From assembly GCA_964019165.1 (NCBI GenBank), contig OZ025281.1, positions 9,732,388 through 9,796,387 of the forward strand: 64,000 nt of DNA, read 5' to 3'. The translations under genes were made by a program, and so were the position numbers. The notes under the pieces were generated by a model. It worked only from the letters and a program-made list of their open reading frames with translations, was not told where the DNA came from and did no database searches. This document shows positions 27,912 to 49,375 of the stretch, piece after piece. The stretch comes from Mastigias papua. Lineage: Eukaryota; Cnidaria; Scyphozoa; Rhizostomeae; Mastigiidae. Within the stretch, counting starts at the first letter, position 1. Every line of letters starts with the position of its first letter.

Positions 27912-29242
27912 ATATATAAGGTATTATCAAAGAGCTGGTGCAAAATTGGGTATAAGTGGGGTTTTGAGGGGTGTAAATGAAAAAATGGTGAAATATGATT
28001 ATTTTATAAAATGGAAATTAACAGAATGATAAAATTAGTATATATAAGAAATGGTAAAAAGGGTTGGTATTAAGGAATGTGGTAATTGGATGATTGGAGA
28101 ATAATGAATGTTTATGAGAGAATGGTAAAATAGAATGGGAATTATAAGATGAATAAATTAGAATGGAATTATTGGATGAATAATTAGAATGGAATTATTG
28201 GATGAATAATTAGAATGGAATTATAAAATGAAATTATAAAATGAAATTATAAAATGAAATTATAAAATGAAATTATAAAATGAAATTATAAAATGAAATT
28301 ATAAAATGAAATTATAAAATGAAATTATAAAATGAAATTATAAAATGAAATTATAAAATGAAATTATAAAATGGATTTATAAAATGGATTTATAAAATGA
28401 ATTTATAAAATGAAATTATAAAATGAATTTATAAAATGGATTTATAAAATGAATTTATAAAATGGATTTATAAAATGGATTTATAAAATGGATTTATAAA
28501 ATGGATTTATAAAATGGATTTATAAAATGGATTTTATAAAATGGATTTATAAAATGGATTTATAAAAATGGATTTATAAAATGGATTTATAAAATGGATT
28601 TATAAAATGGATTTATAAAATGGATTTATAAAATGGATTTATAAAATGGATTTATAAAATGGATTTATAAAATGGATGTAAAAGGACTAGTACCAATAAA
28701 CTGGAATAAAATGTTATTTAAGATGTATTGGAATTAATTTAGAATAAATGGATTTAATACAATGGAAATGATTGTTGGAAATTTTTAAAAAATTCTTCCT
28801 ATGGTATACAAACCACTCCGTTATTAATGGTGCATAATAAAATAGCCATTTTATATTGGACGTTAATAAATAAGTCTTACTTTTGTTATCATTAAATGGG
28901 TATATGGATTATTTGTTATTTATTGGTTTAGACAATTTAGTCTTAACGGTGTGAAAATATGGAATCACCCGGCCAGATTGGTTTAGCGTTAGCTAAAACA
29001 ATATGGCCAGGCAATCAGTCAATGGTTTTATAAACTAGCCATTTTCCATTGGGGTTACTTAATGGCCTTACTTAATGGCTTTACTAAAACACCTATTTAT
29101 TTGGGTGCGATTTTAATTACAAGCATAAATAACATATTTTATTGGCTTTTGGGGATTGTTACAAGTGATATTTATATGAATTTGTACCACTATCGTGTGG
29201 TTTTATTTCGCTTGTGATTTATGTATGGTCACATCGCGTGGT
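27912..29242. repeat. Polinton left terminal inverted repeat
   Basis: 1,331 bp, mirrored at 48045-49375 with exactly equal length. All segments I compared agree, including single-base irregularities in the internal minisatellite. The repeat starts ATATATAAGG and ends at ...CATCGCGTGGT. Non-coding. It is expected to carry the replication origin where terminal protein primes synthesis, and integrase recognition ends. Confidence 0.95.
28165..28680. repeat. 13-bp minisatellite inside left TIR
   Basis: About 38 tandem units of the TAAAATGGATTTA type. The outer part uses the variant TAAAATGAAATTA and the inner part the GGATTTA form, with two units carrying one extra base. A TTGGATGAATAATTAGAATGG-like longer repeat precedes it. 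Confidence 0.95.
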
Positions 29243-29289
29243 TGTGTTTTATGTGCGTGTATAAAAATATAATTATATATATATAAGAG

Positions 29290-29790
29290 ATGAAAAAAAT
29301 TTGTGATGATATACAATCATGTGTTTCTAATAGCGATTATGAAAGTATTAAAACGATCTATCACTTATCACAAGAAATAACAAAGATTTGTCAAATTGCT
29401 GCAAGAGAAGGTAATTTAGAATGTTTAAAATACGCTCATGAAATTGGATGTCCATGGGATAAAGAAACTTGCACACAAGCAGCAATAAATGGTCATTTAG
29501 AATGTTTAAGATATGCTCATGAAAATGGTTGCCCATGGGATAAAGAAACATGCTCAAGAGCTGCTTGTAATGATAATATTGATTGTTTAAAATATGCTCA
29601 TGAAAATGGTTGTCCATGGGATTCTATAACATCTGTTGGTGCTGCTAAATATGGTAAAATAGAATGTTTTAAATATGCTCTTGAAAATGGATGTCCTTTA
29701 GAAGATTACATCTGCGAGTTGGCTGCAGAAAACGGTCATTTAGATTGTTTAAAATACGCTCATGAACATGGGTGTCCGTGGGATTATTAA
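29290..29790 (+). CDS. Ankyrin-type repeat protein, short
   Basis: 166 residues. After a 40-residue leader there are four 27-residue units and a partial fifth, each of the form (E/D)CLKYAHENGCPWDKETC--AA-NGHL. This is the ankyrin-like repeat style abundant in Mimivirus-type giant viruses and some protists, where such proteins often act as host-interaction adaptors. The frame stops directly after a CPWDY motif, so it looks like a shortened relative of the two about 390-residue proteins at the other end of the element. First gene after the left inverted repeat. Its ATG follows an all-AT leader (ATATATATATAAGAG). Function not known. Confidence 0.8.
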   Translation: MKKICDDIQSCVSNSDYESIKTIYHLSQEITKICQIAAREGNLECLKYAHEIGCPWDKETCTQAAINGHLECLRYAHENGCPWDKETCSRAACNDNIDCLKYAHENGCPWDSITSVGAAKYGKIECFKYALENGCPLEDYICELAAENGHLDCLKYAHEHGCPWDY

Positions 29791-29868
29791 TTTTAATGAT
29801 TTATTTATTTATCCTCTAAGTGGGTATTCATATTATTATTATATTTTATTGTAATATAAAATATAACA

Positions 29869-30513
29869 ATGAAGATACCTAATTTAGACTTAAATAAAAA
29901 AGAATGCGATAATAATTATATATTAAAATGGCCATTTCGTTTACTCATTATTGGCGATAGCTCTCGTGGTAAAACAAACTTAGTGATTTATATGGTTCTT
30001 TCATGTATGTTCTTTGATCGGCCTGATATAATTTATTATTATGGTCGTAATATTCAACAGGATAAAATACAATACTTAAAATCAATTTCCGATAAAATGA
30101 GAGATAAAATAGGTTATGATTTTTTTGTGTTAATAGATGATGTTACAAAAATACCATGTTGTGATGCTTATAAAAATAATTCTAAAAAATTAATTATATT
30201 CGATGATCTTATGACAGCAAAAAATGCAAGCAAAAACATTATAGATCATTTTATCTACGGACGACAGAAAAATATTTCAAGTATATTCTTATCACAATGT
30301 TATACGGATGTCGAACAGGCTATAAGACTTAATTCTAATTATATGGTTTTATATCATCCTAAGACTAAACGCTGTATGAAGATGATATTACGCGAAAATT
30401 TCATCGATGAAAATGCTTTTGATAACTTAAAAGGACAGGAGCACAAACATGATTTTATTTTTGTGGATAAAGATAATGAAAAATATTATAAAAATTTTGA
30501 TGAAGAAATATAA
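29869..30513 (+). CDS. FtsK/HerA (A32-like) genome-packaging ATPase
   Basis: 214 residues. Walker A GDSSRGKT at 29-36 follows a hydrophobic strand (WPFRLLIIG). Walker B LIIFDD is at 108-113. A conserved FIYGRQKNISSIFLSQ block (sensor/arginine-finger region) follows at about 123. This is the DNA-packaging ATPase common to Polintons, adintoviruses and nucleocytoplasmic large DNA viruses. It would pump the genome into the capsid at a vertex. Length is normal for the family. Preceded by the leader AATATAAAATATAACA and followed 10 bp later by a zinc-ribbon gene. Confidence 0.92.
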   Translation: MKIPNLDLNKKECDNNYILKWPFRLLIIGDSSRGKTNLVIYMVLSCMFFDRPDIIYYYGRNIQQDKIQYLKSISDKMRDKIGYDFFVLIDDVTKIPCCDAYKNNSKKLIIFDDLMTAKNASKNIIDHFIYGRQKNISSIFLSQCYTDVEQAIRLNSNYMVLYHPKTKRCMKMILRENFIDENAFDNLKGQEHKHDFIFVDKDNEKYYKNFDEEI

Positions 30514-30523
30514 TAATATATAT

Positions 30524-30673
30524 ATGAGTGATATATATTGTGTGAAATGTAAAACAAAAACACCGACCATTGATGAAAAAGTTGTTGTCACAAAGAATAA
30601 CAGAAACGCTATCACAGGAAAATGTCAAAATTGCGGAAGAACAAAATACATGTTTATTAAGAAACAATTATAA
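30524..30673 (+). CDS. Small zinc-ribbon protein, DUF5679-like
   Basis: 49 residues. Two CxxC pairs (C6/C9 and C34/C37) frame a short basic segment with the TKNNRNAI...G pattern, then KYMFIKK. This is the DUF5679-type zinc ribbon found in phages and Polintons, with function unknown. A longer frame opens upstream inside the ATPase gene, but the ATG at 30524 sits behind the element's usual TAATAATATATAT leader and starts the conserved part. The next gene begins with a near-duplicate of the same ribbon. Confidence 0.75.
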   Translation: MSDIYCVKCKTKTPTIDEKVVVTKNNRNAITGKCQNCGRTKYMFIKKQL

Positions 30674-30684
30674 GATATAATATA

Positions 30685-31197
30685 ATGGAAATATATTGTG
30701 TTAAATGTAAGCAGAAAACAGATACGGAAAATATTGGAAAAACAACAACAAAGAATAATAGATTGGCAATACGAGGTAATTGTGAAAAATGTAATACAGA
30801 AAAATATATGTTTATTAAACAATCAGGATCAGCTATAGATATCCATAAATTAATTGGTAACTTACCACGGCCAAAGACAGGCTGGACACCAGGTAATTAT
30901 AAGTATCTTGGGCCTTATAATCCATTAGAATCACAAGTATCATTTGATGAAAATACAGGTGAGATACAAAAGATATATACACCGCCTAAAAATAAATTAG
31001 ATGAAATCGCGATGAAACACGATATTTGTTATTCAGTAAATCCACAAAACAAAGGCGATTGTGATCGTACGATGGTAAAGTCAATTGATGAGATGCCATA
31101 CAAAGACATGAATAAAATGGCTATGCTTGCAAGAACAATTATTAACAAAAAACAACAACTTGGATTAGGAGTAAAAAAAAAAACGACACAAAAATAG
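30685..31197 (+). CDS. Zinc ribbon fused to phospholipase A2-like domain
   Basis: 170 residues. Residues 1-46 repeat the DUF5679-like zinc ribbon of the preceding gene (C5/C8, C33/C36). Residues about 66-150 resemble the PLA2 domain of parvovirus VP1 and adintovirus proteins: a calcium-loop-like YLGPYNP at 74-80 and the catalytic His-Asp pair in MKHDICY (H112-D113), followed by a DCDRTM helix. In virions such a domain helps membrane escape. That role here is inferred. The C-terminus runs into an A11 tract at 31173-31183, past which the -1 frame leads straight into the integrase. In related elements I recall this domain directly fused to the integrase, so the stop at 31195-31197 may be a frameshift site. 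Confidence 0.75.
   Translation: MEIYCVKCKQKTDTENIGKTTTKNNRLAIRGNCEKCNTEKYMFIKQSGSAIDIHKLIGNLPRPKTGWTPGNYKYLGPYNPLESQVSFDENTGEIQKIYTPPKNKLDEIAMKHDICYSVNPQNKGDCDRTMVKSIDEMPYKDMNKMAMLARTIINKKQQLGLGVKKKTTQK
31173..31183 (+). other. A11 tract at PLA2/integrase junction
   Basis: Eleven A residues (GGAGT-A11-CG). The integrase frame (-1) is open from about 31144, so slippage here would join the two proteins. It may also be a homopolymer indel or assembly error. Confidence 0.6.
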
Positions 31198-31226
31198 ATA
31201 ATGATCGTAAAGAATACGCGAAAGAA

Positions 31227-32045
31227 ATGCATAAACGTGCTATCCATAAGTTTCAAAGACGATTTGTTTATAGCCCTGGCATTGATGAAATATGGACAGC
31301 AGATTTGATTATTTTAAACAGAAAACAATATGTAAAACAAAATGATGGGTATAAATATATTTTAACTGTAATGGATTTGTTTTCACGTTATGCATGGGTA
31401 CGAGTCACAAAGAATAAAGATAAAAAAACAATTGCTGATGCATTTGAGGATATTATAAATAAAAGCGAGCGAAAGTGTGCGAGGCTATGGACGGACGACG
31501 GAGGTGAATTTTACAATAAATACTTTCAAAATACATTAAAACGGCTTAAAATTATTAGATATACAACAAAAAGTCATTTAAAAGCTATTATGATTGAGAG
31601 ATATAATCAAACGCTTATGAATAAGATAAGTTATTTGTTTACAGAACGTGGTAATTATCGTTATATCGACGATATACATAATATCGTGGATAAATATAAT
31701 AACACATATCATAGTTCTATAAAAATGACACCACAAGAAGCAAGTAAAAAAGAAAATGAAGGCTTGGCATATTATAATCAATATAATAAAAAGATACGTG
31801 ATAGATATTTACAAAATAAAAAAGCAAAATATAAAATAAATGATCATGTTAGAATAAAAAGAACTAAAAAACACTTTGATAAGGGTTATGACAAACGATG
31901 GTCTGATGAAATTTATTTAATTTATAAAAAAATTAATTCATCATTACCACCTACATTTAAAATTAAAGAAATTTTAGAAAATGGAAAATATAAATATATT
32001 TCACGAAATTTTTATGAACAAGAATTACAAAAAACAAAATTTTAA
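31227..32045 (+). CDS. Retroviral-type (rve) DDE integrase
   Basis: 272 residues from the first in-frame ATG. The RNase H-fold core shows D26 (WTADLI), D90 (WTDDGGEF) and E124 (MIERYNQT), the DDE triad. The C-terminus carries a basic SH3-like part and the ELQK ending typical of Polinton integrases. It inserts the element into host DNA and generates the 6-bp duplication seen here. Unlike its neighbours it has no AT leader before the ATG. The frame is open about 80 bases upstream and family-like residues (YAKE) precede the ATG, suggesting expression by frameshift from the PLA2 gene or loss of a former fusion. Confidence 0.93.
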   Translation: MHKRAIHKFQRRFVYSPGIDEIWTADLIILNRKQYVKQNDGYKYILTVMDLFSRYAWVRVTKNKDKKTIADAFEDIINKSERKCARLWTDDGGEFYNKYFQNTLKRLKIIRYTTKSHLKAIMIERYNQTLMNKISYLFTERGNYRYIDDIHNIVDKYNNTYHSSIKMTPQEASKKENEGLAYYNQYNKKIRDRYLQNKKAKYKINDHVRIKRTKKHFDKGYDKRWSDEIYLIYKKINSSLPPTFKIKEILENGKYKYISRNFYEQELQKTKF

Positions 32046-32083
32046 AAAAAATACTTAAAGAAAATTTTATATATATAAATTAT

Positions 32084-35000
32084 ATGAATAATCAATTTGA
32101 AAATTTTATCACAACTTTTAAAAATATTCTTAAAAGTAAAAATCGTGATATTAAAAAGGCATACTATTTTGCTTTAAATGCTTTGAGAAGTGTTAATGCT
32201 TTTCAATTCAAACCAAGGCAACAAGTCATAATAAATAAATTAATAAAATATTATAGTGAACCCAATGAAACTAAAAAAAACGAATTAAATGATTATATAA
32301 CACAATATTATATCGACGACGACGATGATGATGATGATGTAATAGATGAAGATGATGAAGAGGATGAAGATGATGATGATAATAATAAAGTTATAAGAGA
32401 TATTTTAGTAAAAAAATTGGAATTTAATTTAGAAGATGTAATCAAATTAGAGAATTATTCGATTAATAAATTATTATCTTTATATAATATTACATTAAAA
32501 TCAGCTTTAACCCCGTATATTTTGGGGACATGGGTTTGTGAAAAACAATTGCTTTTTTCTGAGCCATATAAAAAAACTTTTATAAAACGATATATAAAAA
32601 AACATCCTGTCGTTAAATGTAATTCAATTGTAAAAATTATTATGGCTTCTGTAAATGACAAAAAGAGAATATATCCAATATTTCAAACTAAATATATTAT
32701 AATAAGAAATGAGGAGGACATAGATTATTTTTTAAGGGAAAGCGCGATAGACATCGTAAGTAGGATTGGTAAATTCACAAAAAAAATGAATGCGCAACAA
32801 AGCACAGAAACACAACCAGATAATAGGAGTGGGTACACTGATGTTGGTATTGAATATGAGAAGATGAATATTGTAAAAATTCAAAATGTCTTCGCAAACG
32901 GGTATATTTCATTAGATCCACGAATAATAAACACTAAGTCATGTATTAATATCAAGAATAACGATGATAAATGCTTTTTGTATTGTCATTTACTTCACGA
33001 AAGATATAAATTAAATAATTTTAAAAAAATACAAAACCCTGAGAGGCTCCATGGTCAAAAAGCATTCAATTATAATAATCAAATGATTCACTTGAATTAT
33101 GAAAATATTAATTTTCCAATACCATATAACACATTTTATACTGTTAAAAAGATTAAAGAACAGAATAAAACAAGAATAAATATTTTTGAGTATAAAGAAA
33201 ATAAAAAGAATGATATAGTACCAATATATCATAGTAAAAAAACGGAATATAAAGATTGTATGAATTTGTCAGTTATTTCTGATAAAGCAAAAAAGAATTA
33301 TCATTATGTTTATATTAAAAATTTAAATAAATTGTTAAAAAATACAACGAAATATGATGGCACGAAAATTTGTGAAAACTGTTTGAAATCTTTTAGCACA
33401 CAAAAAGCGTTTAATTCAATTAATCATAAATGTAATTACAAATATAATTCATCAGAATTACCAAGTCATATGGCCATCGCTGATAATAAATTATTAAAAT
33501 GTCCCATAGACATGTATGTGAAACCATTTAATCTTAAACATTCAATACATTTGCCATTTGTGATGTATTGCGATTTCGAGAGTATATTAAAAATATCAGA
33601 AGATGAAAAATATCCTGACAAACGAGAGCATAAATTATCAAGTTATTGCTATAATTTAGTGTGTCGTGAACGACCGGTGTTTAATCGTTATAAATTATAT
33701 CGTGGAAATGGAAATGAATCAGTTATAGATCATTTTTTAGCAGAAGTTAAAAATGTATTAGAATATATTAAACAATGTAAAAAGAAATTCTATTCATTAC
33801 CAGCTTTAACAGATCAACAATTAAAAAGACATAAGAAATTGAAACATTGTGAAATATGTGATGTCCGCTTTGATAAAGATATAAAACGGGTTCAACATCA
33901 TAATCATATATCAGGCGATTATATCGCAACAACATGTCAGTCGTGTAACAGCAAAATAAGAACTGATACAACCTTATATATCGTCTTCCATTACTTAAAA
34001 GGTTATGATATTCATTATATCATCAATAAAATAAATGATTATTTCAAGGACTCTAATATAAATCTACTTGGTACAAATAGTCAAAGTATTTTTCATATTG
34101 ATATAGGGTTTACTATTAAAATCATTGATTCTCATGAATATATTAAAGGATCATTAAAAAGCCTATCAGAAAACTTAAAAGATGAAGATATAATTTACAC
34201 ACGTAATTTAGTTAATAAATACGGAAATGATTTTATTAAAAAAGATATATTTCCATATCGATATATTGATGATTTTACAAAATATGATGAAACAACATTC
34301 CCTGATAAAAAATATTTTGATAATGTAGATAAAGAAACATATGAAAATTATCGTAAGTTTTATTATTCAAACTTTAATACGCTTGGTGAATACTCTGATT
34401 ATTATCTCGAAAAGGATGTAAGATTATTATCTGATATTATGGAATCATATAGAACGATATTTATGGATAAATATGAGACTGAAATATTTAGTCATTATTC
34501 TATAAATTCATTAACTTGGGAAATCATGAAAAAATGGTGTCCAGTACAAATAAAAATATTAGATAATTATAAAATTTATAGTGCTTTTGAAAGCATGACG
34601 AGAGGAGGACTTTGTGATATAGCCTCTATAAGATATTCATACGCGAATAACAAATACATGGAAAATTATGATTCTAATATTGAATCATCATATATAATGC
34701 ATTTTGATATCAATAGTATGTACGGTCATATTATGAGAACCTATCCTATGCCTTATGATGACTTTAGTTTTTTAACAAATGAAGAAATAAACGATTTTAA
34801 TATATGGGATTATGATATTAACAGTGATTATGGTTTTATTTTAAATATTGATATCAGTGAAATTGATATTAAATATCATGATTATTATAATGACCTACCG
34901 TTATTTCCTGTAAAAGAAACGATATTAAAAAAGAATATTAGTGATTATCAAAAACAAATACTTAAAGATAATAAAAAGAATTTTATTTCATCGCAAAAAT

Positions 35001-35995
35001 TGATTTGTAATTTTAATGAAAAGATGAATTACACATTACATTATCTCACATTGCAATTTTATTTAAAAATGCCCGGTTTTAAGATAAAGCAAATAAATAA
35101 TATTATAAGATTTAAACAAGCAAAATATCTTAAGGATTACATAGAATATAATCATAAAAATCGTATAGAAAGTACAAATGAAAATGACAAAAATCTTTAC
35201 AAGCTTATGATTAATTCTTTATTTGGGCGTACGCTTTTAAACAAAAAGAAATATTGTTCAAATCTTAAAATATTCAATAATCAAGATTATGAAAAAGTTC
35301 TTAAAATAGTAAGTAGTGATAGATTTAAAGACTATGAAACAATCGATGAAAACAATGCTATCGTAAATATAGAAAAACAATGTATCAAATTGGACAGTCC
35401 ATCATACATAGGATCATGTATTTTAGATTTATCGAAAATCATATTTTATGATAATTGGTATAAACTCAAAAATAAATATAAAGATAATATAGCATTAATG
35501 TATTATGACACTGATTCGTATTTATGCCATATTAAAACTGAGGATATTTATAAAGATATGAGTGAGATGGATATTTTTGACATGTCATCTTATAATCATG
35601 ATTTTAAATATTATACTGAAGGTGTTTATGAGACGGGCTTATTAAAAGATGAAAATTCATCACCTAAAATTGAAAATTCAGTATATAAAACTCAAATTGT
35701 TGAAGCTTGTGCCTTGAAAAGTAAATTATATGGATATATAAAAGAGAATGATAAAATAAAATATAAAGGTATTAAAAATGAATTAGATTTTCAATCATTA
35801 AAAGATGCTATTTTTGATAATAAAACAATCAAAAGCGATTTTTATACAATAAAAGCTAAAGATCATAAAATATACTCATACACTGATAATAAAACACTAA
35901 TGAGTTACATAGACAAACGTTATTTGTATAATCCTGTTATGTCATATGCTTATGGGCATTATATGATTGACAAAAATTATGAAAATATGTTATAA
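32084..35995 (+). CDS. Protein-primed family B DNA polymerase (pPolB)
   Basis: 1,303 residues, normal for Polintons. An acidic tract (78-99) and an extended N-terminal region, possibly the terminal-protein part, come first. A C2H2-like finger (CENCLKSF) follows at about 430. The exonuclease core has D497/E499 (CDFES), D642 (KGYDIHY) and D778 (YYLEKD). An endonuclease VII-like Cys/His insert (CEICDVRF...HHNH...CQSC) lies near 589-625, as in other Polintons. Polymerase motifs: A at D875 (FDINSMYG), B at 1040-1048 (KLMINSLFG), C at 1140-1145 (YYDTDS). All catalytic residues are present, so it should be active. It copies the linear element from its terminal repeats. Leader TTTTATATATATAAATTAT. 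Confidence 0.97.
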   Translation: MNNQFENFITTFKNILKSKNRDIKKAYYFALNALRSVNAFQFKPRQQVIINKLIKYYSEPNETKKNELNDYITQYYIDDDDDDDDVIDEDDEEDEDDDDNNKVIRDILVKKLEFNLEDVIKLENYSINKLLSLYNITLKSALTPYILGTWVCEKQLLFSEPYKKTFIKRYIKKHPVVKCNSIVKIIMASVNDKKRIYPIFQTKYIIIRNEEDIDYFLRESAIDIVSRIGKFTKKMNAQQSTETQPDNRSGYTDVGIEYEKMNIVKIQNVFANGYISLDPRIINTKSCINIKNNDDKCFLYCHLLHERYKLNNFKKIQNPERLHGQKAFNYNNQMIHLNYENINFPIPYNTFYTVKKIKEQNKTRINIFEYKENKKNDIVPIYHSKKTEYKDCMNLSVISDKAKKNYHYVYIKNLNKLLKNTTKYDGTKICENCLKSFSTQKAFNSINHKCNYKYNSSELPSHMAIADNKLLKCPIDMYVKPFNLKHSIHLPFVMYCDFESILKISEDEKYPDKREHKLSSYCYNLVCRERPVFNRYKLYRGNGNESVIDHFLAEVKNVLEYIKQCKKKFYSLPALTDQQLKRHKKLKHCEICDVRFDKDIKRVQHHNHISGDYIATTCQSCNSKIRTDTTLYIVFHYLKGYDIHYIINKINDYFKDSNINLLGTNSQSIFHIDIGFTIKIIDSHEYIKGSLKSLSENLKDEDIIYTRNLVNKYGNDFIKKDIFPYRYIDDFTKYDETTFPDKKYFDNVDKETYENYRKFYYSNFNTLGEYSDYYLEKDVRLLSDIMESYRTIFMDKYETEIFSHYSINSLTWEIMKKWCPVQIKILDNYKIYSAFESMTRGGLCDIASIRYSYANNKYMENYDSNIESSYIMHFDINSMYGHIMRTYPMPYDDFSFLTNEEINDFNIWDYDINSDYGFILNIDISEIDIKYHDYYNDLPLFPVKETILKKNISDYQKQILKDNKKNFISSQKLICNFNEKMNYTLHYLTLQFYLKMPGFKIKQINNIIRFKQAKYLKDYIEYNHKNRIESTNENDKNLYKLMINSLFGRTLLNKKKYCSNLKIFNNQDYEKVLKIVSSDRFKDYETIDENNAIVNIEKQCIKLDSPSYIGSCILDLSKIIFYDNWYKLKNKYKDNIALMYYDTDSYLCHIKTEDIYKDMSEMDIFDMSSYNHDFKYYTEGVYETGLLKDENSSPKIENSVYKTQIVEACALKSKLYGYIKENDKIKYKGIKNELDFQSLKDAIFDNKTIKSDFYTIKAKDHKIYSYTDNKTLMSYIDKRYLYNPVMSYAYGHYMIDKNYENML

Positions 35996-36119: not shown

Positions 36120-37490
36120 ATGAAATTAGAAGATTATAAAAAACTTGTTGAGATACAATTATTGACAGAAAATGGATTACAAAATATTCTTGAAGCAAAT
36201 AAAGCATATCAGAATAATGAAATAGAAAAGGATTTTAATAATGCTAAAATGTTTAAAACAATAACAGAAAGTAATAAAGAATTAATTGATCGAATTGAGA
36301 AAAAAACAGATCAAAGTGATGAAATAATAAAACAGTTTAAAAATGCCTTACCAATATATAATCAACAAATACCAGAGCCATTAAAATATGAGGATGGTAA
36401 TGAAAATAAAGAATTATCAGAAAAATTAAATACAATGAATATTTTTGATAATAACGATGAAATTAATTTTATTACTAATTTGATTAAGGGTAATCGTGTT
36501 TTCTTGTATAAGGGTAAACAAGATAATGTTGAACATTATTCAAATATAAAATTGATAGATTTAGGAGAATTGAATAAATATACTATTGATGAATTAAAAG
36601 AATATTTAAAATCAGATGAACTAACTAAATTCACTAAACAACTTAGTGGTGCAAAAAAATACCATGAAGGCTTTGAAATGAAAATAGGAGCTTTAAATAA
36701 ATATAAAGAAGCAATAAAAGGTTATATACATAGTCGTGATTTTGTAAAAAAAATAGATAAACCTGATGATAAAGAAGATGATAAACAAGATGATAAAGTA
36801 GTAGACGATAAACCAGCAGATGATAAACAAACAGACGATAAACAATCAGACGATAAACCAGCAGATGATAAAATTACAGAGATTGAGGGTAAAGGAATTA
36901 AACGAAGAAACCGTTATAAAATAGAAAATGGAAAATATAATGAAAAAATAAAAATAAATATGGATAAATTGTATAATAATTATTATGTTGAAGCATGGTA
37001 TAATAATGATATTATTTACGAAAATCAAGGTGACAGAGACACACTTGAACTTTTAACAAAAAGCAGAATTAACAAAAAGAAGAAATATAGTAAATTAAGC
37101 CAACAAATTTTTAATGATATGATAACATTATCAGGAATGGTTAAAAAAAGAAATGCGAAAAATAAATTATTAGGTTCGAGTAATATTATTTTAAACGAAC
37201 ATGATAGACAAAAAAGAATTGAATTATTACGCGGGAGTATCGTTGCAGGCAATGATAATGAGAAGTTACATAACGAATTATCAAAATTAAGTAATCAAGA
37301 AAATGTGACACAAAATAAAAGCGTGAATGATTTATATAGAACATTAAAAACATTAACTCCTTTGATGAAAACTTCTAAGGCTGATGTAAATACTCATAAT
37401 CAAGTATATAATATAATTGATTATTTAAGATCAAACAAATATATATCACGAGATCAATATCATAAATATATAAAAAAACATTTAATGTAA
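36120..37490 (+). CDS. Unknown Polinton protein with Lys/Asp repeats
   Basis: 456 residues, first gene of the structural block. Residues 1-215 are predicted helical and highly charged. About 218-255 is a DDKxADDK-type low-complexity repeat. The C-terminal 200 residues hold a globular part (EGKGIKRR..., LLTKSRINKKKKYS, ending YISRDQYHKYIKKHL) that resembles a conserved Polinton/adintovirus protein family whose function I cannot name. Soluble, with no signal peptide or membrane segment. Possibly a virion or scaffold component, judged only from its place before the capsid genes. Leader TATAATATATATTATA. Confidence 0.7.
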   Translation: MKLEDYKKLVEIQLLTENGLQNILEANKAYQNNEIEKDFNNAKMFKTITESNKELIDRIEKKTDQSDEIIKQFKNALPIYNQQIPEPLKYEDGNENKELSEKLNTMNIFDNNDEINFITNLIKGNRVFLYKGKQDNVEHYSNIKLIDLGELNKYTIDELKEYLKSDELTKFTKQLSGAKKYHEGFEMKIGALNKYKEAIKGYIHSRDFVKKIDKPDDKEDDKQDDKVVDDKPADDKQTDDKQSDDKPADDKITEIEGKGIKRRNRYKIENGKYNEKIKINMDKLYNNYYVEAWYNNDIIYENQGDRDTLELLTKSRINKKKKYSKLSQQIFNDMITLSGMVKKRNAKNKLLGSSNIILNEHDRQKRIELLRGSIVAGNDNEKLHNELSKLSNQENVTQNKSVNDLYRTLKTLTPLMKTSKADVNTHNQVYNIIDYLRSNKYISRDQYHKYIKKHLM

Positions 37491-40792: not shown

Positions 40793-41247
40793 GATTTGAA
40801 GACGAACCTATAAGTGATATAGATTTAAAGAGATGGATTTATCACTTGAAAATAAAGAATTTTGGAGGTGTTTATGCTAAAGATCAATTAACACGTGATA
40901 TGATTAAAAAAGATCATTTCTATATTATAAATTTAGATAATTTTAATTCTGTAAAAAACGGAACTCATTGGACTGCTTTTTATTATGATAAAAAATATAA
41001 TCATATAGAATATTTCGATTCTTATGGATTGATGCCACCAAAGATAATTAGTGAAAATTATAATTATATATATAACACAAGTCAGTTTCAAAGTTACAAT
41101 TCAATGGCTTGTGGATATTATTGTCTTTATTATATTTATCATCGATTTCATGGTCTTAGTTTTTATGAAATTATAAAACGATTTAGTTTGGTAGATAAAG
41201 AATACAATCAAAAATTGATTATAGATTTTTTTAATAAATATAAGTAA
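40789..41247 (+). CDS. Adenovirus-type (C5/Ulp1-fold) maturation protease
   Basis: 152 residues counted from 40789. Catalytic residues: H60 (GTHWTAF), D77 (YFDSYG), oxyanion Q101, and nucleophile C108 (SMACGYYC), with Q-C spacing of seven as in adenovirus protease. It cleaves capsid precursors during virion maturation. Start problem: codon 40789 is TTG, and the first in-frame ATG (RDM, residue 38) would remove the conserved N-terminal block (FEDEPISDIDL...FGGVYAKD). Translation may use TTG, reinitiate at the TTGA overlap, or come from -1 slippage on the upstream A11. An ancestral ATGA overlap changed to TTGA is also possible. Confidence 0.88.
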   Translation: MRFEDEPISDIDLKRWIYHLKIKNFGGVYAKDQLTRDMIKKDHFYIINLDNFNSVKNGTHWTAFYYDKKYNHIEYFDSYGLMPPKIISENYNYIYNTSQFQSYNSMACGYYCLYYIYHRFHGLSFYEIIKRFSLVDKEYNQKLIIDFFNKYK

Positions 41248-41259
41248 TATTATATATAC

Positions 41260-42252: not shown

Positions 42253-42262
42253 TATAAAATAT

Positions 42263-42361: not shown

Positions 42362-42371
42362 TATATAATAT

Positions 42372-44594
42372 ATGGGAAAATATGATGGAGTAATATCAGA
42401 TTATAAAGACAATGAAAATCAAATTAAATTTAATATGAATGATTTCCATTGGAGCAATGATAATATGATTAATATTAATAAGAATATCAAGTTTATTCTT
42501 CATTCGAGCCAATATAGTGATAAATTCACGATTAAAAATGATGTGTTAGACATTGATAAAGATAAAATCGAAATCAATGCTAAATCGATCATACCTATCG
42601 ATTCATTAGGTACCCCAACATCAATTATAAGTGTTGATAATAATGATAAATTGAAATTAAATTTATCATCTGATTTTATGACCTTGAATAATGCTCTTTA
42701 TTGTAATTTAGGCGCTGGTTTAACAAGAGACGACCAAAATAGAATTACAATAAATATAGCGAAATGTAATCTCAAATTTGTAAATAATCAGCTCTGTATC
42801 GATATGAATGCTATGATTGATGATTTTAATTGTATAAAGCTAGATAATAAAAACCGATTAAGATTAGATTTCAATGCAGATGATTTCATCAAAGACAGCA
42901 CAGGAAAATTATGGTTAAAACTGTATGACAAGCATCTCGTACGTACTCAAAATGGTATTGAGTTAAATATTGACAACGACACGATACGATTTGATACAAA
43001 TGAATCGAAACTAGTATCAAGTATTGATAAATATGTCGTGCCGCAATATTCACAGAATGGTGATATTTATTTAGACGCCGCAACAAAAAAGATGAAATTA
43101 AACATAAACAATTACGTGGATGATAATATCGGGTCGAAAGTAATTATGAATACAAATAACAAGATAGACTTAAACATCGTAAATCAACAGTCAGGTGAAA
43201 TTTATTTCGAAAAAACGAATCAATTGGCCATCAGACCATCTCCATATTTTACAAGAGATTCATCAGGTCATTTGATACCGATTGTAAATAACGATCATGC
43301 TCTTAATCTTAATAATCATAAATTAAATTTAGACGTGTCCGCACCATTGACTTTTGTAAATAAAAAGTTAACATTAGATTATGATGCTTATTTTAAGTTA
43401 ACAAATAATAAATTAGATATTGATATTACGAAATTAAAAACAGATATTGTTATACCCAAGCAAAACGAGGGTATAAAACTAAATCACGACGGTACTTTAT
43501 CAATTGACACGTCTGTGCTTACGAGCTTGATAAACGTGAGTTCTTTATCAGGTCTTAAAATTGTTAATAATACAATTATTGTAGATGAAGGGCTTATGTC
43601 GAGTAATTTAATTAGATTGAACAGTAATTCAACTATTAAAAGACGTGCTAATAACTTTTACGAGATTGAGTGCGATCGTGTTTCAATAGATAGTGATTTT
43701 ACTAGTGGAGCATTAAAAGTAAAAGACACTTATGTCCCATCTGTTGTTACATCTGATTATATTAAAAATAAAGTTCAAAATGAATCATACTTTAAAGATA
43801 TGTTAAAGTTTCAAGGGCCATGTATTTTAAAAAGATGTGCCCTGTGTTGGATGGATCTTAATTGTGAGGGAGATGTAGATAAATCAATAGGGACAAATTC
43901 TGTGATTATAAATAAATTACATAATCAAAAACACAGATTTAAGGATTTCTATTATTATACATGTGAAAATAGTCCAACATATCATTATAAACATTACACC
44001 TATCTTGTTTTTACTGATATCAATAATGATAATCATATATATTTTAATAATACCAATCAAAAAATGACTTTTGTAGATGCATTTCTTAAAAAGAATGATT
44101 TATTTTCCGTGTGTTTTAACTTCGTTATAGAGCCTGAAAAGAAAAGTGTAGATATTAATTCCACATTAATGTCGTATGATACTGATAACTATATAAAAGT
44201 ACTTTATAACAATCAAGGCATCGTTTATCGATTCGGCGATATGTATAAAAACAGTAATTATTTATTAGAAGCTATTATACCAACACCAAATTCATTATTA
44301 AATCGGAAAAATATTATAACAGTATATTTTAGTGGAATAAACGACACTTTGGGAAATAATAATAAAAATATTGTTTATGTAAATAGTAATAAAATTCAAG
44401 ACGATATAATAACTATTAATCCATCGTTTATCGACCAATTACAACAACAATATAATACATTTAATTTATTTAATAACATCAATAATTCACAGTCGTTTTA
44501 TGGAAAATTTTATGATTTCTCAATGCTACAAAACTTAAGTGTACAAGAAATGATAAATTTACATGAGTATTACAAGTACATCCATAATATATAA
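42372..44594 (+). CDS. Long fibre-like protein with beta-spiral shaft
   Basis: 740 residues. About residues 60-430 consist of repeated short units of the adenovirus fibre-shaft type, a turn followed by alternating hydrophobic strand residues: DDQNRITINI, VNNQLCIDM, DNKNRLRLDF, QNGIELNI, NTNNKIDLNI, PLTFVNKKLTLDYD, TNNKLDIDI, NHDGTLSID. After a middle region, the C-terminal 230 residues look like a LamG/ConA-type head (MSYDTDNYIKVLYN, IITVYFSG, YGKFYDFSML...MINLHEYY) resembling that of the gene at 41260. Predicted trimeric attachment fibre projecting from the penton. Intact frame, leader TATAATATATAATAT. Confidence 0.7.
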   Translation: MGKYDGVISDYKDNENQIKFNMNDFHWSNDNMININKNIKFILHSSQYSDKFTIKNDVLDIDKDKIEINAKSIIPIDSLGTPTSIISVDNNDKLKLNLSSDFMTLNNALYCNLGAGLTRDDQNRITINIAKCNLKFVNNQLCIDMNAMIDDFNCIKLDNKNRLRLDFNADDFIKDSTGKLWLKLYDKHLVRTQNGIELNIDNDTIRFDTNESKLVSSIDKYVVPQYSQNGDIYLDAATKKMKLNINNYVDDNIGSKVIMNTNNKIDLNIVNQQSGEIYFEKTNQLAIRPSPYFTRDSSGHLIPIVNNDHALNLNNHKLNLDVSAPLTFVNKKLTLDYDAYFKLTNNKLDIDITKLKTDIVIPKQNEGIKLNHDGTLSIDTSVLTSLINVSSLSGLKIVNNTIIVDEGLMSSNLIRLNSNSTIKRRANNFYEIECDRVSIDSDFTSGALKVKDTYVPSVVTSDYIKNKVQNESYFKDMLKFQGPCILKRCALCWMDLNCEGDVDKSIGTNSVIINKLHNQKHRFKDFYYYTCENSPTYHYKHYTYLVFTDINNDNHIYFNNTNQKMTFVDAFLKKNDLFSVCFNFVIEPEKKSVDINSTLMSYDTDNYIKVLYNNQGIVYRFGDMYKNSNYLLEAIIPTPNSLLNRKNIITVYFSGINDTLGNNNKNIVYVNSNKIQDDIITINPSFIDQLQQQYNTFNLFNNINNSQSFYGKFYDFSMLQNLSVQEMINLHEYYKYIHNI

Positions 44595-44616
44595 TAAGAT
44601 TATAATATATATTATA

Positions 44617-45057
44617 ATGGATTCGCCGAGAAATGTTATTAGATTTATGAATGAGAATTTCTATCTCTTTGAAAAACAATATGAGGATGTTGATAAAAAT
44701 GTCTTAAAAGCTGCCATCGCTTATAAATATTTATTAGCTACTTATTTACACATTAAAAATGTTACAATAGAACAGATTTTAATCGAGAATGATTACGACA
44801 TAGGTCTAATCGGCCCTGGTCATTCATGTTTAACAAGTATATGTGAAAAAATATGTCCCAATCGCGTCTGTCATTTGCATTCTATTCTTCATGATGTATA
44901 TGGTCGTATATTTTTGAAATATAATCAAGGGCGTGGTTATTTTTATATGTTTAAAGCACCTAATTGGATGAAAAAGTGTCCGTTGTTCGGTCATATTACA
45001 GGATTAATGTATTCAATTTATTATAATATCAGATATTATCATGAATATCAAACTTAA
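44617..45057 (+). CDS. Unknown Cys/His-containing protein
   Basis: 146 residues from the ATG that follows the leader ATAATATATATTATA. An upstream in-frame ATG at 44563 lies inside the fibre gene and is less likely. Helical N-terminal half, then a central GPGHSCLTSICEKICPNRVC and LHSILHDVYGR motif, ending in hydrophobic/aromatic residues. The H...HD pattern recalls phospholipase-like sites but I cannot assign a family. Last plus-strand gene. Its 3' end overlaps the convergent minus-strand gene by 29 bp. Confidence 0.6.
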   Translation: MDSPRNVIRFMNENFYLFEKQYEDVDKNVLKAAIAYKYLLATYLHIKNVTIEQILIENDYDIGLIGPGHSCLTSICEKICPNRVCHLHSILHDVYGRIFLKYNQGRGYFYMFKAPNWMKKCPLFGHITGLMYSIYYNIRYYHEYQT

Positions 45058-45589
45058 GAATTTCTTTAATCTTATTCCATAATATTAAATATTCATTTGT
45101 TTTACGAACGTTATTTCTTATTTTAATTTCATGACATTTTCCATGTTTTAAGAATTCAATGTATATTTGTTTTATAATATATTTTAAATTAATTTTTTTA
45201 TCAATTTTATTATCTCTTTCCCATTGTATGATTTTATTACAATATTCTAATATAATATATTTTTGATACTCGCTCATAAATATATTAAATTGTTTATTGA
45301 TTTCATTTAAGGTGTTTAAAATATAATATTTTCTGTGATACACGGATCGTGATTTTTTATAATTATAATCATACGGCTGTAAATCAGCGTTGAAATAATT
45401 TATAAGACACGAGCAATTTTTACAATATTTTCCATTTTCATGAACATAATAATCGTAACAGTTACAATTTTCACATTCGTCTTTTGATTTTATATTTTTA
45501 TTTTTTAACTCTTTTAAATATTTATCACAGTATAGACAATATGATTCATCCATTTTAAGAAATTGAATATGAATGTCACGATTACACAT
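45029..45589 (-). CDS. VLTF3-like late transcription factor candidate
   Basis: 186 residues (174 if the second Met is used). N-terminal zinc-binding part with CxxC pairs at 18/21, 39/42 and 56/59. Next comes a YHRKYYILNTLNEI segment, then helices ending NLKYIIKQIYIEFL and YLILWNKI. Order and motifs (zinc ribbon, Y-x-R-x-x-H/Y-Y helix, I-x-x-I-x-KQ-IF helix, LW block) resemble the poxvirus late transcription factor 3 family found in large DNA viruses and some polinton-like viruses. If right, it would direct transcription of the structural genes. Divergent, so this remains a candidate. Confidence 0.5.
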   Translation of the reverse strand: MCNRDIHIQFLKMDESYCLYCDKYLKELKNKNIKSKDECENCNCYDYYVHENGKYCKNCSCLINYFNADLQPYDYNYKKSRSVYHRKYYILNTLNEINKQFNIFMSEYQKYIILEYCNKIIQWERDNKIDKKINLKYIIKQIYIEFLKHGKCHEIKIRNNVRKTNEYLILWNKIKEILKFDIHDNI

Positions 45590-45603
45590 ATGTATAATAT
45601 GTA

Positions 45604-46785
45604 TTATATTTCTTTCTTCAATAATATTTTTTTTTTAATAAACGATCGACATTTTCCATAAGATTTTTCATATGTATTTTCATCGTAAAAACTATCAAAT
45701 AATGCTCGATGCATAAACACATAACTTAAACATTTTACTGAATCATTTTTTAATATATTTTCAAAATCATCTTTAGTTATGATAAGTGAATACTTCTTTA
45801 TAAAATACTTTAAAAATGATAATTTATCATATTTAATTATTTCTTTCATAATATCCATAGAAACCCATGGGCAGCCGTTATCAATAAGATATTTTATAAC
45901 ACTGATTTTTTTATTCTGAACAGCACGAGAAACACTGTTTTCGTCAAATAATAAAATATCAGTTTTACGTAAATATTTAATACAATCTAAATCACAATAT
46001 TTTACAGCGTTTACGGCAGTATATAATTCGTAATCGCACATACTTTCAACCAAAAATTTAATACATTCTAATAGATCATTTTCAACAGCCAACGAAAATG
46101 TATTATGGGTTATTTTACTGCCTTTTTCATGAGCATATTTAAGACATTCACTATTGCCGTCTTTTAAGCAACATAAAGTAGCACTTAAATCATCGAATTT
46201 TAAATCCATAATTTCATGAAGATATTTCAATATTCTTATATCACCCATTTTACATGCTTCGTTAAGCATATCTTCATCTGTTGGACAACCATTTTCACAA
46301 GCATATTCGAGACATCCGTAATTCTTATTTTGTATCGCTTTATAAATACACATCTCATCCCATGGACATCCATTTTCATGAGCATATTTCAAACAATGAA
46401 AATGACAATTCTCTGCCGCAATATCACAAACTTTTCTACTCCATGGACATTTATTATCATGCAAATATCTCATAATCCCTAATGAATCAGATTTACATGC
46501 ATTTTCCATTGTTTTTTCATCAATTTTATCACCATTAACATGAGCATATTTTAAACATTGTAAATGACCATAAGCCGCTGCTATATCACATACGCCTTGT
46601 AATGATACACCTTCTTCTTTATGAACTTTTTCAAGACATTTTAAATGACCCATTTGAGCAGCGCATTTCTGACGAGAATATGAATAATCTTCATCTGTCA
46701 TCTGATATTGTATCATATTATCAAAACATTTTTCAAAGTCGCCAAATTGTTCAACAGATATTTTACAAAAATAACAACTACTCAT
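45604..46785 (-). CDS. Ankyrin-type repeat protein, long (1)
   Basis: 393 residues. The N-terminus has SSCYFCKISVEQFGDFEKCF, and about eleven ankyrin-like units of 26-28 residues follow, with cores such as CLKYAHENGCPWD and DIAAENCHFHCLKY. Same style as Mimivirus ankyrin proteins. Units are more diverged than in the neighbouring protein and the C-terminal third is degenerate. It starts from ATG at 46785 behind an ATATATAATTATA leader. Likely a host-interaction accessory protein. The partner is unknown. Confidence 0.8.
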   Translation of the reverse strand: MSSCYFCKISVEQFGDFEKCFDNMIQYQMTDEDYSYSRQKCAAQMGHLKCLEKVHKEEGVSLQGVCDIAAAYGHLQCLKYAHVNGDKIDEKTMENACKSDSLGIMRYLHDNKCPWSRKVCDIAAENCHFHCLKYAHENGCPWDEMCIYKAIQNKNYGCLEYACENGCPTDEDMLNEACKMGDIRILKYLHEIMDLKFDDLSATLCCLKDGNSECLKYAHEKGSKITHNTFSLAVENDLLECIKFLVESMCDYELYTAVNAVKYCDLDCIKYLRKTDILLFDENSVSRAVQNKKISVIKYLIDNGCPWVSMDIMKEIIKYDKLSFLKYFIKKYSLIITKDDFENILKNDSVKCLSYVFMHRALFDSFYDENTYEKSYGKCRSFIKKKILLKKEI

Positions 46786-46821
46786 TATAATTATATATGG
46801 TGATATTTCTTTAAGTATTTT

Positions 46822-47994
46822 TTACGCACATTTATTTTTTATATATTGTAAACAATCTTTAATTTCTATATTCTTTGGTTTGATATATCGTAATATTTTA
46901 TTTTTATCATAATAATAATCATTTTCAATTGCATATTTCATCATATCATATTCACCATTCTCAACAGTAATATAAACAATCTTTTTACTCATTGGACAAC
47001 CGTTTTCATGAGCATATTTAAAACAATCAAAATGTCTGTTTTTTGCAGCTGCTTCTGATACTCTCATATTCCATTTACATCCGATTTGATGAAGAAATTT
47101 TAAACATTCTAATTCACCATATTCACAAGCCAATGAACAACATGTAGTTTGTGCTTTATGTATTTTACATCCATTTTCATAAGCATATTTTAAGCAATTT
47201 AAATGACCTTTTTTAATAGCACGATATAAAACTGAACTTCGCCACGGACATCCGTTTTCATGAGCATATTTTAAACAATCTAAATGACCATTACTTGCTG
47301 CCAATTCACAAGTCAAATCATCCCAATAAAATCCGTTTTTATGAGCATATTTTAAACAGTCTAAATGCCCAAAAGCAGATGCATTTACGCAAGTGAAAAC
47401 ATCTCTTGCACATCCATTTTCATGAGCATATTTTAAACAATCTAAATGACCATTTTTAGCAGCATTTTCGCAAACATGATCACCCCACGGACATTTGTTT
47501 TCATGAGCATATTTTAAACATTCTAATTGACCATTAATAGTAGCTACCGCACAAGACCATTGACCCCAAAGACATCCATTTTCATGAGCGTATTTTAAAC
47601 ATTCTAAATGACCATTTTTTATAGCAATATCAATTGTACCACTATCCCATGGACATTTATTTTCATGAGCAAATTTTAAACATTCTAATTGACCATATTC
47701 AGCAGCTGTTGTGCAAACATATTCACAGTCAAATTTCCGTTCTATAAAATATTGTAAACAATTTATACGCCCATATTTCGCAGCGGTTTCAGTATAAAAT
47801 CTTTCATTAATCAAAAATATATCATTGTTTTGATTACTATTAAATGTAAGAGCATATTTTAAACATTCTAAATGACCATTTTTTACAGCTTCGTCTTCAT
47901 CGATATTTCTACAACATCGTTTACATTCATATTTTTTAGGGACCATTAAACTTTCATCAATTTTTCTCATAGATAAATTCTGTAAAGAAAACAT
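46822..47994 (-). CDS. Ankyrin-type repeat protein, long (2)
   Basis: 390 residues. A Cys-rich start (YECKRCCRNIDEDE) precedes about twelve 27-residue ankyrin-like units with the consensus NGHLECLKYAHENGCPWD--TCE-AA. Central units are nearly identical at DNA level, suggesting recent unit duplication or exchange. Closest relative in sequence style is the short protein at 29290, lying symmetrically inside the other terminal repeat. It is read toward the middle of the element. Leader AAATTATAAAAG. Confidence 0.82.
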   Translation of the reverse strand: MFSLQNLSMRKIDESLMVPKKYECKRCCRNIDEDEAVKNGHLECLKYALTFNSNQNNDIFLINERFYTETAAKYGRINCLQYFIERKFDCEYVCTTAAEYGQLECLKFAHENKCPWDSGTIDIAIKNGHLECLKYAHENGCLWGQWSCAVATINGQLECLKYAHENKCPWGDHVCENAAKNGHLDCLKYAHENGCARDVFTCVNASAFGHLDCLKYAHKNGFYWDDLTCELAASNGHLDCLKYAHENGCPWRSSVLYRAIKKGHLNCLKYAYENGCKIHKAQTTCCSLACEYGELECLKFLHQIGCKWNMRVSEAAAKNRHFDCFKYAHENGCPMSKKIVYITVENGEYDMMKYAIENDYYYDKNKILRYIKPKNIEIKDCLQYIKNKCA

Positions 47995-48044
47995 CTTTTA
48001 TAATTTATATATATATAATATTTTTTTAAGTTATTTTTTTTGTT

Positions 48045-49375
48045 ACCACGCGATGTGACCATACATAAATCACAAGCGAAATAAAACCACACGATAGTGG
48101 TACAAATTCATATAAATATCACTTGTAACAATCCCCAAAAGCCAATAAAATATGTTATTTATGCTTGTAATTAAAATCGCACCCAAATAAATAGGTGTTT
48201 TAGTAAAGCCATTAAGTAAGGCCATTAAGTAACCCCAATGGAAAATGGCTAGTTTATAAAACCATTGACTGATTGCCTGGCCATATTGTTTTAGCTAACG
48301 CTAAACCAATCTGGCCGGGTGATTCCATATTTTCACACCGTTAAGACTAAATTGTCTAAACCAATAAATAACAAATAATCCATATACCCATTTAATGATA
48401 ACAAAAGTAAGACTTATTTATTAACGTCCAATATAAAATGGCTATTTTATTATGCACCATTAATAACGGAGTGGTTTGTATACCATAGGAAGAATTTTTT
48501 AAAAATTTCCAACAATCATTTCCATTGTATTAAATCCATTTATTCTAAATTAATTCCAATACATCTTAAATAACATTTTATTCCAGTTTATTGGTACTAG
48601 TCCTTTTACATCCATTTTATAAATCCATTTTATAAATCCATTTTATAAATCCATTTTATAAATCCATTTTATAAATCCATTTTATAAATCCATTTTATAA
48701 ATCCATTTTATAAATCCATTTTTATAAATCCATTTTATAAATCCATTTTATAAAATCCATTTTATAAATCCATTTTATAAATCCATTTTATAAATCCATT
48801 TTATAAATCCATTTTATAAATCCATTTTATAAATTCATTTTATAAATCCATTTTATAAATTCATTTTATAATTTCATTTTATAAATTCATTTTATAAATC
48901 CATTTTATAAATCCATTTTATAATTTCATTTTATAATTTCATTTTATAATTTCATTTTATAATTTCATTTTATAATTTCATTTTATAATTTCATTTTATA
49001 ATTTCATTTTATAATTTCATTTTATAATTTCATTTTATAATTTCATTTTATAATTTCATTTTATAATTCCATTCTAATTATTCATCCAATAATTCCATTC
49101 TAATTATTCATCCAATAATTCCATTCTAATTTATTCATCTTATAATTCCCATTCTATTTTACCATTCTCTCATAAACATTCATTATTCTCCAATCATCCA
49201 ATTACCACATTCCTTAATACCAACCCTTTTTACCATTTCTTATATATACTAATTTTATCATTCTGTTAATTTCCATTTTATAAAATAATCATATTTCACC
49301 ATTTTTTCATTTACACCCCTCAAAACCCCACTTATACCCAATTTTGCACCAGCTCTTTGATAATACCTTATATAT
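48045..49375. repeat. Polinton right terminal inverted repeat
   Basis: Mirror of 27912-29242 with equal length. Ends CCTTATATAT and is followed by AGCGGT at 49376-49381. Confidence 0.95.
48607..49122. repeat. 13-bp minisatellite inside right TIR
   Basis: Reverse complement of the left array (TAAATCCATTTTA units). The units with an extra base sit at mirrored positions. Confidence 0.93.

What the first reader, a model, noticed from the sequence alone, without database searches (positions are those of the whole stretch)
27912..49375. Complete, apparently intact Polinton with a full virion gene set
Six-base AGCGGT duplications, 1,331-bp inverted repeats and all four hallmark genes are present, together with major and minor capsid, pVI-like, protease and two fibre-like genes. 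Catalytic residues of polymerase, integrase, ATPase and protease are intact. Such completeness suggests an endogenous virus that could still move or make particles.
Basis: partly seen in the sequence, partly recalled or inferred. Interest (0 to 1): 0.9.

Follow-up and report, generated by a model that had tools for sequence, protein, structure and literature searches.

The report
Polinton with two frameshift-linked genes
This stretch is a complete copy of a virus-like mobile element in an animal genome, and its integrase and protease genes look as if they are made by a retrovirus-style slip in reading frame that joins each enzyme to a structural protein.

Summary
The element is real: 27912-49375 is a Polinton with identical 1,331-bp inverted repeats and AGCGGT duplications. 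It is one of many insertions in its 347-Mb genome (144 integrase and 101 capsid-type matches, lower bounds, fragments included). Of 19 end pairs read, 17 show a clear 6-bp duplication. Lineages have traded gene blocks.

'Intact' hides something. The protease frame has no ATG before its domain; it opens in the -1 frame just before an A11 run near the end of the pVI-like gene. The integrase stands in the same relation to a PLA2-domain gene, at a second A11 run. The -1 relation holds in 43 of 60 protease and 37 of 51 integrase junctions. Two other lineages use T_TTA_AAC or A_AAA_AAC with a covarying stem 7 nt downstream. Of 120 listed database relatives of a natural PLA2-integrase ORF, 100 carry both domains in one protein.

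I infer Gag-Pol-like fusions that carry integrase and protease into particles. Ribosomal versus transcriptional slippage is undecided for this copy. Nothing was measured.

The parts
27906..27911 (.). left target-site duplication AGCGGT
27912..29242 (+). left terminal inverted repeat, 1331 bp
   Evidence: 1331/1331 identical to right copy
28130..28677 (+). 13-bp minisatellite inside left repeat, about 35 copies
   Evidence: TRF
29290..29790 (+). ankyrin-repeat ORF, 166 aa
   Evidence: Ank_4 E 2.7e-15
29869..30513 (+). packaging ATPase, 214 aa
   Evidence: Pox_A32 E 1.7e-10
30685..31197 (+). DUF5679 + parvovirus-type PLA2 protein, 170 aa (upstream partner of integrase)
   Evidence: PF18930 E 3.8e-13, PF08398 E 1.2e-7
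31173..31183 (+). A11 run, PLA2-to-integrase slip site; PLA2-frame codons GTA AAA AAA AAA ACG
31146..32045 (+). integrase open frame, -1 to PLA2; its first ATG, 31227, lies downstream of a stretch under coding selection
   Evidence: rve E 8.9e-11; open frame 299 aa; pN/pS upstream of the ATG
32084..35995 (+). DNA polymerase, probably protein-primed family B, 1303 aa
   Evidence: phrog_1907 E 4.7e-5
36120..37490 (+). 456-aa ORF, unknown
   Evidence: no match above cut-off
37504..38262 (+). penton/minor-capsid-like ORF, 252 aa (by position)
   Evidence: 151 matches in own genome
38287..38655 (+). 122-aa ORF, unknown
38670..39935 (+). probable major capsid protein, 421 aa (by position and conservation)
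   Evidence: 24 database entries, query included; 101 matches in own genome
39965..40792 (+). pVI/PX-like ORF, 275 aa (upstream partner of protease; by position)
40702..40712 (+). A11 run, pVI-to-protease slip site; pVI-frame codons GTA AAA AAA AAA AGA
40690..41247 (+). protease open frame, -1 to pVI, no in-frame ATG before the domain
   Evidence: no family match
42372..44594 (+). fibre with adenovirus-type shaft, 740 aa; variable segment aa 626-700
44563..45057 (+). 164-aa ORF, unknown
45029..45589 (-). 186-aa cysteine-rich ORF
   Evidence: Zn_ribbon_RRN7 E 0.06, below cut-off
45604..46785 (-). ankyrin-repeat ORF, 393 aa
46822..47994 (-). ankyrin-repeat ORF, 390 aa
48045..49375 (-). right terminal inverted repeat, 1331 bp
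49376..49381 (.). right target-site duplication AGCGGT

Best explanation
The element is a Polinton (endogenous virus of the Polinton/Maverick group) that expresses its integrase and its protease as -1 frame fusions. Most translation of the PLA2-domain gene and of the pVI-like gene ends at their own stops. A minority slips back one base on an A-run and continues into the integrase or the protease, giving PLA2-integrase and pVI-protease fusions. Inferred purpose: as with retroviral Gag-Pro-Pol, each enzyme rides into the particle on a structural protein in a small fixed ratio, the protease for maturation and the integrase for delivery with the genome. Shown: the frame relation, its conservation, selection on the linkers, other heptamers with a covarying stem in sister lineages, natural in-frame fusions. 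Inferred: that slippage occurs at all, its efficiency, that PLA2 and pVI-like proteins are in the virion, and the packaging role. The confidence given is for fusions by either kind of slippage; for ribosomal slippage in this very copy I would say about 0.5.
For: (1) Protease: -1 to pVI in 43 of 60 scoreable junctions (61 examined, window included); no ATG between frame opening and domain in 52 of 60; an A-run of 9 or more in 56 of 60. pVI-frame AAA AAA AAA in 42 of those 43, while flanking codon positions are mostly 0.3-0.9 identical. Overlap open in the protease frame in 42 of 43, against 5% of overlapping 27-codon -1 stretches elsewhere in the same pVI genes. (2) Integrase: -1 to PLA2 in 37 of 51 scored junctions (56 examined, 5 without PLA2), with an in-phase slippery site in 32 of 37. 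(3) Between PLA2 stop and integrase ATG, integrase-frame pN/pS 0.32 against 0.90 and 0.95 in the other frames (11 unique sequences); pVI stop to protease: pS 0.50-0.67, pN 0.03-0.06 in the protease frame (three spacing groups). (4) Of 53 in-phase heptamers in the window's plus-strand ORFs only those in the two A-runs open long -1 frames (288/287 and 179/178 codons; next best 36). (5) Clade 3: T_TTA_AAC in 7 of 7. Clade 4: A_AAA_AAC in 4 of 6 (two of these with PLA2 already stopped upstream). Spacer 7 nt, 9-pair stem, 98.8% of cells paired, 2 pairs changed on both sides. No clade-3 or clade-4 copy has ATG at the integrase start position. (6) In-frame fusions occur: 9 of 51 here, one read as a 475-aa ORF, and 100 of 120 listed of 613 database hits carry both domains. 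(7) A11 after GT in the window and A10 after GTC in siblings both leave integrase in -1, so a homopolymer miscall is unlikely.
Against: No expression, ribosome-profiling or protein data. Downstream of this copy's A-runs no stem stands out (z -1.0 and -0.6; -1.6 and -0.8 for the same 90-nt lengths with my own shuffles), and a clade-2 A-run copy has none, so the full classic signal is seen only in sister clades. The integrase here has an ATG at 31227 and could start there. 12 of 60 protease and 4 of 51 integrase junctions are +1, probably slip-indels or decay; they show that the runs are unstable. In the pVI/protease overlap the protease frame is open but its residues are not conserved (pN above pS). 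In-phase heptamers alone are common in this AT-rich DNA. For the stem, two of five measures (pairs changed on both sides, further pair types) were reached by 43 of 500 shuffles. Copies share ancestry, so counts are not independent.
Confidence: 0.78

Rival explanations
1. Same fusions, but made by RNA-polymerase slippage on the A11 run: a share of mRNAs gains an A or loses two, putting the enzyme in frame. (This shares the 0.78 above rather than competing with it.)
For: A10-A11 runs are long enough for polymerase slippage (recalled); no strong downstream stem in the window's clade.
Against: Clades 3 and 4 keep the same -1 relation without long A-runs, with heptamer, spacer and stem.
Confidence: 0.28
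2. Integrase and protease start independently: integrase at ATG 31227, protease at a non-AUG codon or on a spliced mRNA.
For: The integrase ATG is present in the window and in 17 of the 19 clade-1 copies (window included) that have the -1 relation and A-run.
Against: Coding selection 5' of that ATG; ATG absent there in all 13 clade-3/4 copies and in 4 of 24 clade-1 copies; no protease ATG in 52 of 60; 100 of 120 listed database relatives have PLA2 and integrase in one ORF.
Confidence: 0.15
3. The frame breaks are decay or sequencing error in a dead element.
For: Homopolymers are error-prone; several copies have +1 junctions or stops.
Against: The same -1 relation at two loci and, at the integrase locus, in four clades with different slip sequences and run lengths, with other genes open and linkers under selection.
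Confidence: 0.05

Closest known systems
Polinton/Maverick elements (founding papers recalled; vertebrate set PMC8097293, passages read)
   Same: 6-bp target duplications, terminal inverted repeats, integrase, DNA polymerase, ATPase, protease, size
   Different: the vertebrate gene map in the passages lists integrase, minor capsid, PW, major capsid and protease as separate genes; here integrase and protease are each -1 to an upstream gene. Termini begin ATATATAA, whereas an AGT motif is reported there as commonest
Adintoviruses (PMC11071296: section 16 and passages read)
   Same: adenovirus-like virion genes plus integrase; that preprint floats hypothetical -1 frameshifts near the 3' end of Penton ORFs and a similar relation for Hexon-Adenain fusions
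   Different: no integrase chromodomain matched here; the partners here are pVI-like/protease and PLA2/integrase, with comparative evidence
Sf Maverick 1 and 2 (PMC5803895, passages read)
   Same: a parvovirus-like PLA2 protein (CAP) and an rve integrase
   Different: CAP and INT are listed as separate ORFs, INT has a chromodomain, and no frameshift between them appears in the passages seen
Retroviral Gag-Pro-Pol frameshifting (recalled)
   Same: -1 shift at A_AAA_AAC or similar, enzymes fused to a structural precursor
   Different: DNA virus, two structural partners, two separate shifts
Adenovirus fibre and pVI/adenain (recalled)
   Same: fibre shaft similarity; protease works with pVI
   Different: adenovirus protease is not made as a pVI fusion

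Membership tests
[quoted passage not shown]
Polinton | retrovirus-like (rve) integrase | tested here: met
   E 8.9e-11, above cut-off
[quoted passage not shown]
   phrog_1907 DNA polymerase E 4.7e-5, no Pfam match above cut-off; recalled motifs such as YxDTDS visible
Polinton | A32-type packaging ATPase | tested here: met
Polinton | Ulp1/adenain-type cysteine protease | tested here: inconclusive
   C48 and C5 just below cut-offs
Polinton | double jelly-roll major capsid protein | not testable with these tools
   no sequence match; structure prediction switched off
Adintovirus | integrase with C-terminal chromodomain | tested here: not met
   no Chromo match at E<=0.1
Adintovirus | Hexon recognisable by BLASTp against reference adintoviruses | not tested
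   reference sequences were not compared
-1 programmed ribosomal frameshift signal | in-phase slippery site with downstream -1 ORF | tested here: met
-1 programmed ribosomal frameshift signal | downstream RNA structure 5-9 nt away | tested here: inconclusive
   present in clades 3 and 4 with covariation; not seen for the window copy
-1 programmed ribosomal frameshift signal | measured shifted product | not testable with these tools
   needs reporter or mass spectrometry

The most novel reading that the evidence does not exclude
A group of animal DNA viruses makes both its integrase and its maturation protease by -1 frameshifting from two different virion-protein genes, a Gag-Pol strategy in Polintons. 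At the integrase junction the slip signal has taken three forms (A-run, A_AAA_AAC, T_TTA_AAC, the last two with a covarying stem), and other lineages have one permanent PLA2-integrase protein. The particle would thus deliver integrase attached to a membrane-breaching PLA2 protein.
Probability: 0.6. Interest if true: 0.85.

Novelty: new variant of a known kind. Interest (0 to 1): 0.74.

Why it matters
How a Polinton particle would package and deliver its integrase is, to my knowledge, open. A frameshift-made PLA2-integrase fusion gives a concrete, testable answer and a convergence with retroviruses. It also warns annotators: here a protease without a start codon and a split integrase need not be decay. 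The genome offers many recently inserted, recombining lineages in which to test it.

Tried and rejected
Rejected: protease start loss as decay of this one copy (shared by most junctions); a strong stem after the window's A-runs; sequence homology of the 330-aa and 740-aa fibre-like proteins (no significant BLASTP match). The first phase table for integrase junctions chose wrong PLA2 segments and is superseded. Three scans of viral contigs, with the capsid protein, the integrase and an integrase alignment, found no relative. No Rfam or tRNA match in the window. The 1.00 conservation of AAA AAA AAA is by selection of rows (42 of the 43 -1 rows kept). Fibre identities come from the 60 of 240 candidates that were scored, so lower ones would not show. 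L051 and L159 were fetched and not analysed; L161 was used only in alignment A3.

Literature: searches (Polinton or adenain with frameshift terms) listed 17, 1, 0 and 2 papers. I opened passages of PMC8097293, PMC10120064, PMC11071296 and PMC12567637; the other papers of those lists, PMC8537868 among them, I saw only in the listing. Only PMC11071296 had frameshift text bearing on this. Searches (PLA2 with integrase, adintovirus, Polinton or Maverick) showed that PLA2 in Polintons is known (PMC3671162 passages; PMC5803895 passages). PMC8502044, the adintovirus paper, is not held. So 'new' means not seen in these searches of an open-access library.
Full report
WHAT IS THERE. The repeats at 27912-29242 and 48045-49375 are identical over 1331 bases and are flanked by AGCGGT. 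Between them lie seventeen ORFs of 100 aa or more that I take as genes (an eighteenth, antisense at 40120-40431, was set aside). Searches point to ATPase, PLA2-domain protein, integrase, polymerase, protease and three ankyrin proteins; to an adenovirus-like fibre shaft. The capsid, penton-like and pVI-like names rest on size and order, since no profile matched above a cut-off and structure prediction was off. The flank carries a CABIT ORF and a SAM-domain ORF, which I read as an animal GAREM-like gene (recalled); the species is unknown.

COPIES AND AGE. The assembly has 346.8 Mb in 172 contigs. Own-genome searches, all lower bounds and with fragments counted, gave 144 integrase matches (142 of 960 candidates scored), 101 capsid-type (99 of 204), 152 protease (150 of 190), 149 ATPase (150 of 164), 151 penton-like (150 of 179) and 60 fibre matches (60 of 240). 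Of 19 end pairs read (window plus 18 taken from the terminal-repeat search), 17 have a clear 6-bp duplication, with 16 different hexamers (16; that of C25). C5 (low-complexity TATATA) and C23b are ambiguous. The two repeats of an element, compared over the first 0.7-1.5 kb, differ by no substitution in 10 of 19, by 1 in three, by 2 in two, and by 3, 5, 9 and 13 in one each, some with gaps (C25). The window insertion is among those without difference but is not dated: gene conversion and the host mutation rate are unknown.

MOSAIC HISTORY. Against the sibling with the nearest integrase (C17:12888845-12910269) the ATPase is 99%, integrase 97%, pVI-like 91%, protease 93% and fibre 91% identical, but the penton-like and capsid proteins between them only 68% and 61%. 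The window's capsid block goes instead with C5 (92%, 87%) and with copies on C1, C20, C4 and C10 (87-88%, 83-86%). Clade-2 elements, with capsid about 37% and integrase about 60%, carry fibres 66-76% identical, within the clade-1 range, though only the best 60 candidates were scored. Blocks have been exchanged. The fibre has a variable stretch at residues 626-700 (pairwise identity 0.39-0.47 in 25-residue bins, elsewhere 0.60-0.82; 38 full-length rows of 39 aligned, out of 92 entries), as expected of a receptor-binding part (inference).

PROTEASE JUNCTION. The protease frame (40690-41247) has no ATG before its domain and overlaps the end of the pVI-like ORF in the -1 frame, opening 12 bases before an A11 run. 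I examined 61 junctions (window plus 60 fetched); 60 could be scored (L063 lacks a protease match). The relation is -1 in 43, +1 in 12 and in frame in 5. Of the 5, L061 and L080 are one open frame across the run (L080, as L162, is a 401-aa ORF that ends early in the protease); in L111 the shared frame is open for about 650 bases upstream but pVI is broken further up; L059 and L093 are decayed. The in-phase AAA AAA AAA is in 42 of the 43. Selection in the protease frame is strong between the pVI stop and the domain (pS 0.50-0.67, pN 0.03-0.06). It is not seen within the overlap, where only openness is kept (42 of 43 open, against 5% of comparable stretches).

INTEGRASE JUNCTION. The second A11 run (31173-31183) sits near the end of the PLA2 ORF, and the integrase frame runs from 31146 through it in the -1 frame. 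I examined 56 junctions (window, 40, then 15 more chosen from other clades), sorted into clades by integrase identity. Five lack a PLA2 gene (the script filed them under clade 4; I call them a fifth clade). Of 51, 37 are -1, 9 fused in frame, 4 are +1 and 1 is in frame with a stop. The stretch before ATG 31227 is under coding selection in the integrase frame (13 unique sequences; pN/pS 0.31 against 1.28 and 1.50), and differs between clades 1 and 2 by 6 bases, two codons. By eye it resembles the linker of single-ORF PLA2-integrase proteins in the database. Those are common: of 613 hits to a natural fusion, 120 were listed and 100 of these carry both Pfam domains. The 20 without PLA2 include the ~270-aa integrases that are 53-89% identical to the query, most likely from this same species.

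SISTER CLADES GIVE THE TEXTBOOK SIGNAL. Seven of seven clade-3 junctions have T_TTA_AAC in phase, directly before the PLA2 stop. In clade 4, 4 of 6 junctions have A_AAA_AAC, two of them (L147, L169) with PLA2 already stopped upstream; L168 has a changed heptamer and L170 is fused in frame. A stem of 9 or more pairs starts 7 nt downstream (z -2.5, -3.5 and -3.1 in three copies). I aligned 10 of the 13 clade-3/4 copies (L149 and L163 repeat L148 here; L170 was left out). Nine are distinct: 98.8% of cells pair, two pairs change on both sides and two more on one side. The covariation score of 0.278 and the share of paired cells are each reached by 1 of 500 shuffles, but the number of pairs changed on both sides and of pair types by 43 of 500; no slid version comes near. 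One double change lies within clade 3 (L166), the other separates the clades. Few sequences and shared ancestry limit this test.

READING. I take both junctions as sites where a minority of translation shifts -1, giving PLA2-integrase and pVI-protease fusions, as in retroviral Gag-Pro-Pol. For the window's own A11 runs, slippage of the RNA polymerase would give the same products. The virion location of the PLA2 and pVI-like proteins is inferred from parvovirus VP1 and adenovirus pVI (recalled). PMC11071296 (section 16 and passages read) mentions hypothetical frameshifts for adintovirus Penton and for Hexon-Adenain; I saw no report of the two junctions described here in searches of the held library, most of whose listed papers I did not open.

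Noticed in passing
28130-28677 and 48610-49157: A 13-bp minisatellite of about 35 copies lies in each inverted repeat and is identical in both, a probably fast-mutating marker of recent copying or conversion.
   Followed up: partly
29290-29790, 45604-46785, 46822-47994: Three ankyrin-repeat genes near the two ends, with LECLKYAHENGCPWD-type repeats resembling those of giant viruses (recalled).
   Followed up: no
P0001 residues 626-700 (fibre 42372-44594): Fibre has a strongly variable stretch among relatives; 92 fibre entries against 24 capsid entries in the 90%-clustered database, each count including the query.
   Followed up: partly
C3:21437070-21437755 (L051): Terminal-repeat matches facing each other within about 0.7 kb, perhaps a non-autonomous or deleted derivative.
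   Followed up: no
L150, L151 (C13:2058076, C10:4654875): A further clade has no PLA2 match upstream and an integrase frame with its own longer N-terminal part, a natural contrast.
   Followed up: partly
16954-17715 and 54484-55283: A pair of inverted repeats about 87-91% alike (about 500 plus 260 bases) lies on both sides of the Polinton, probably host repeats.
   Followed up: no
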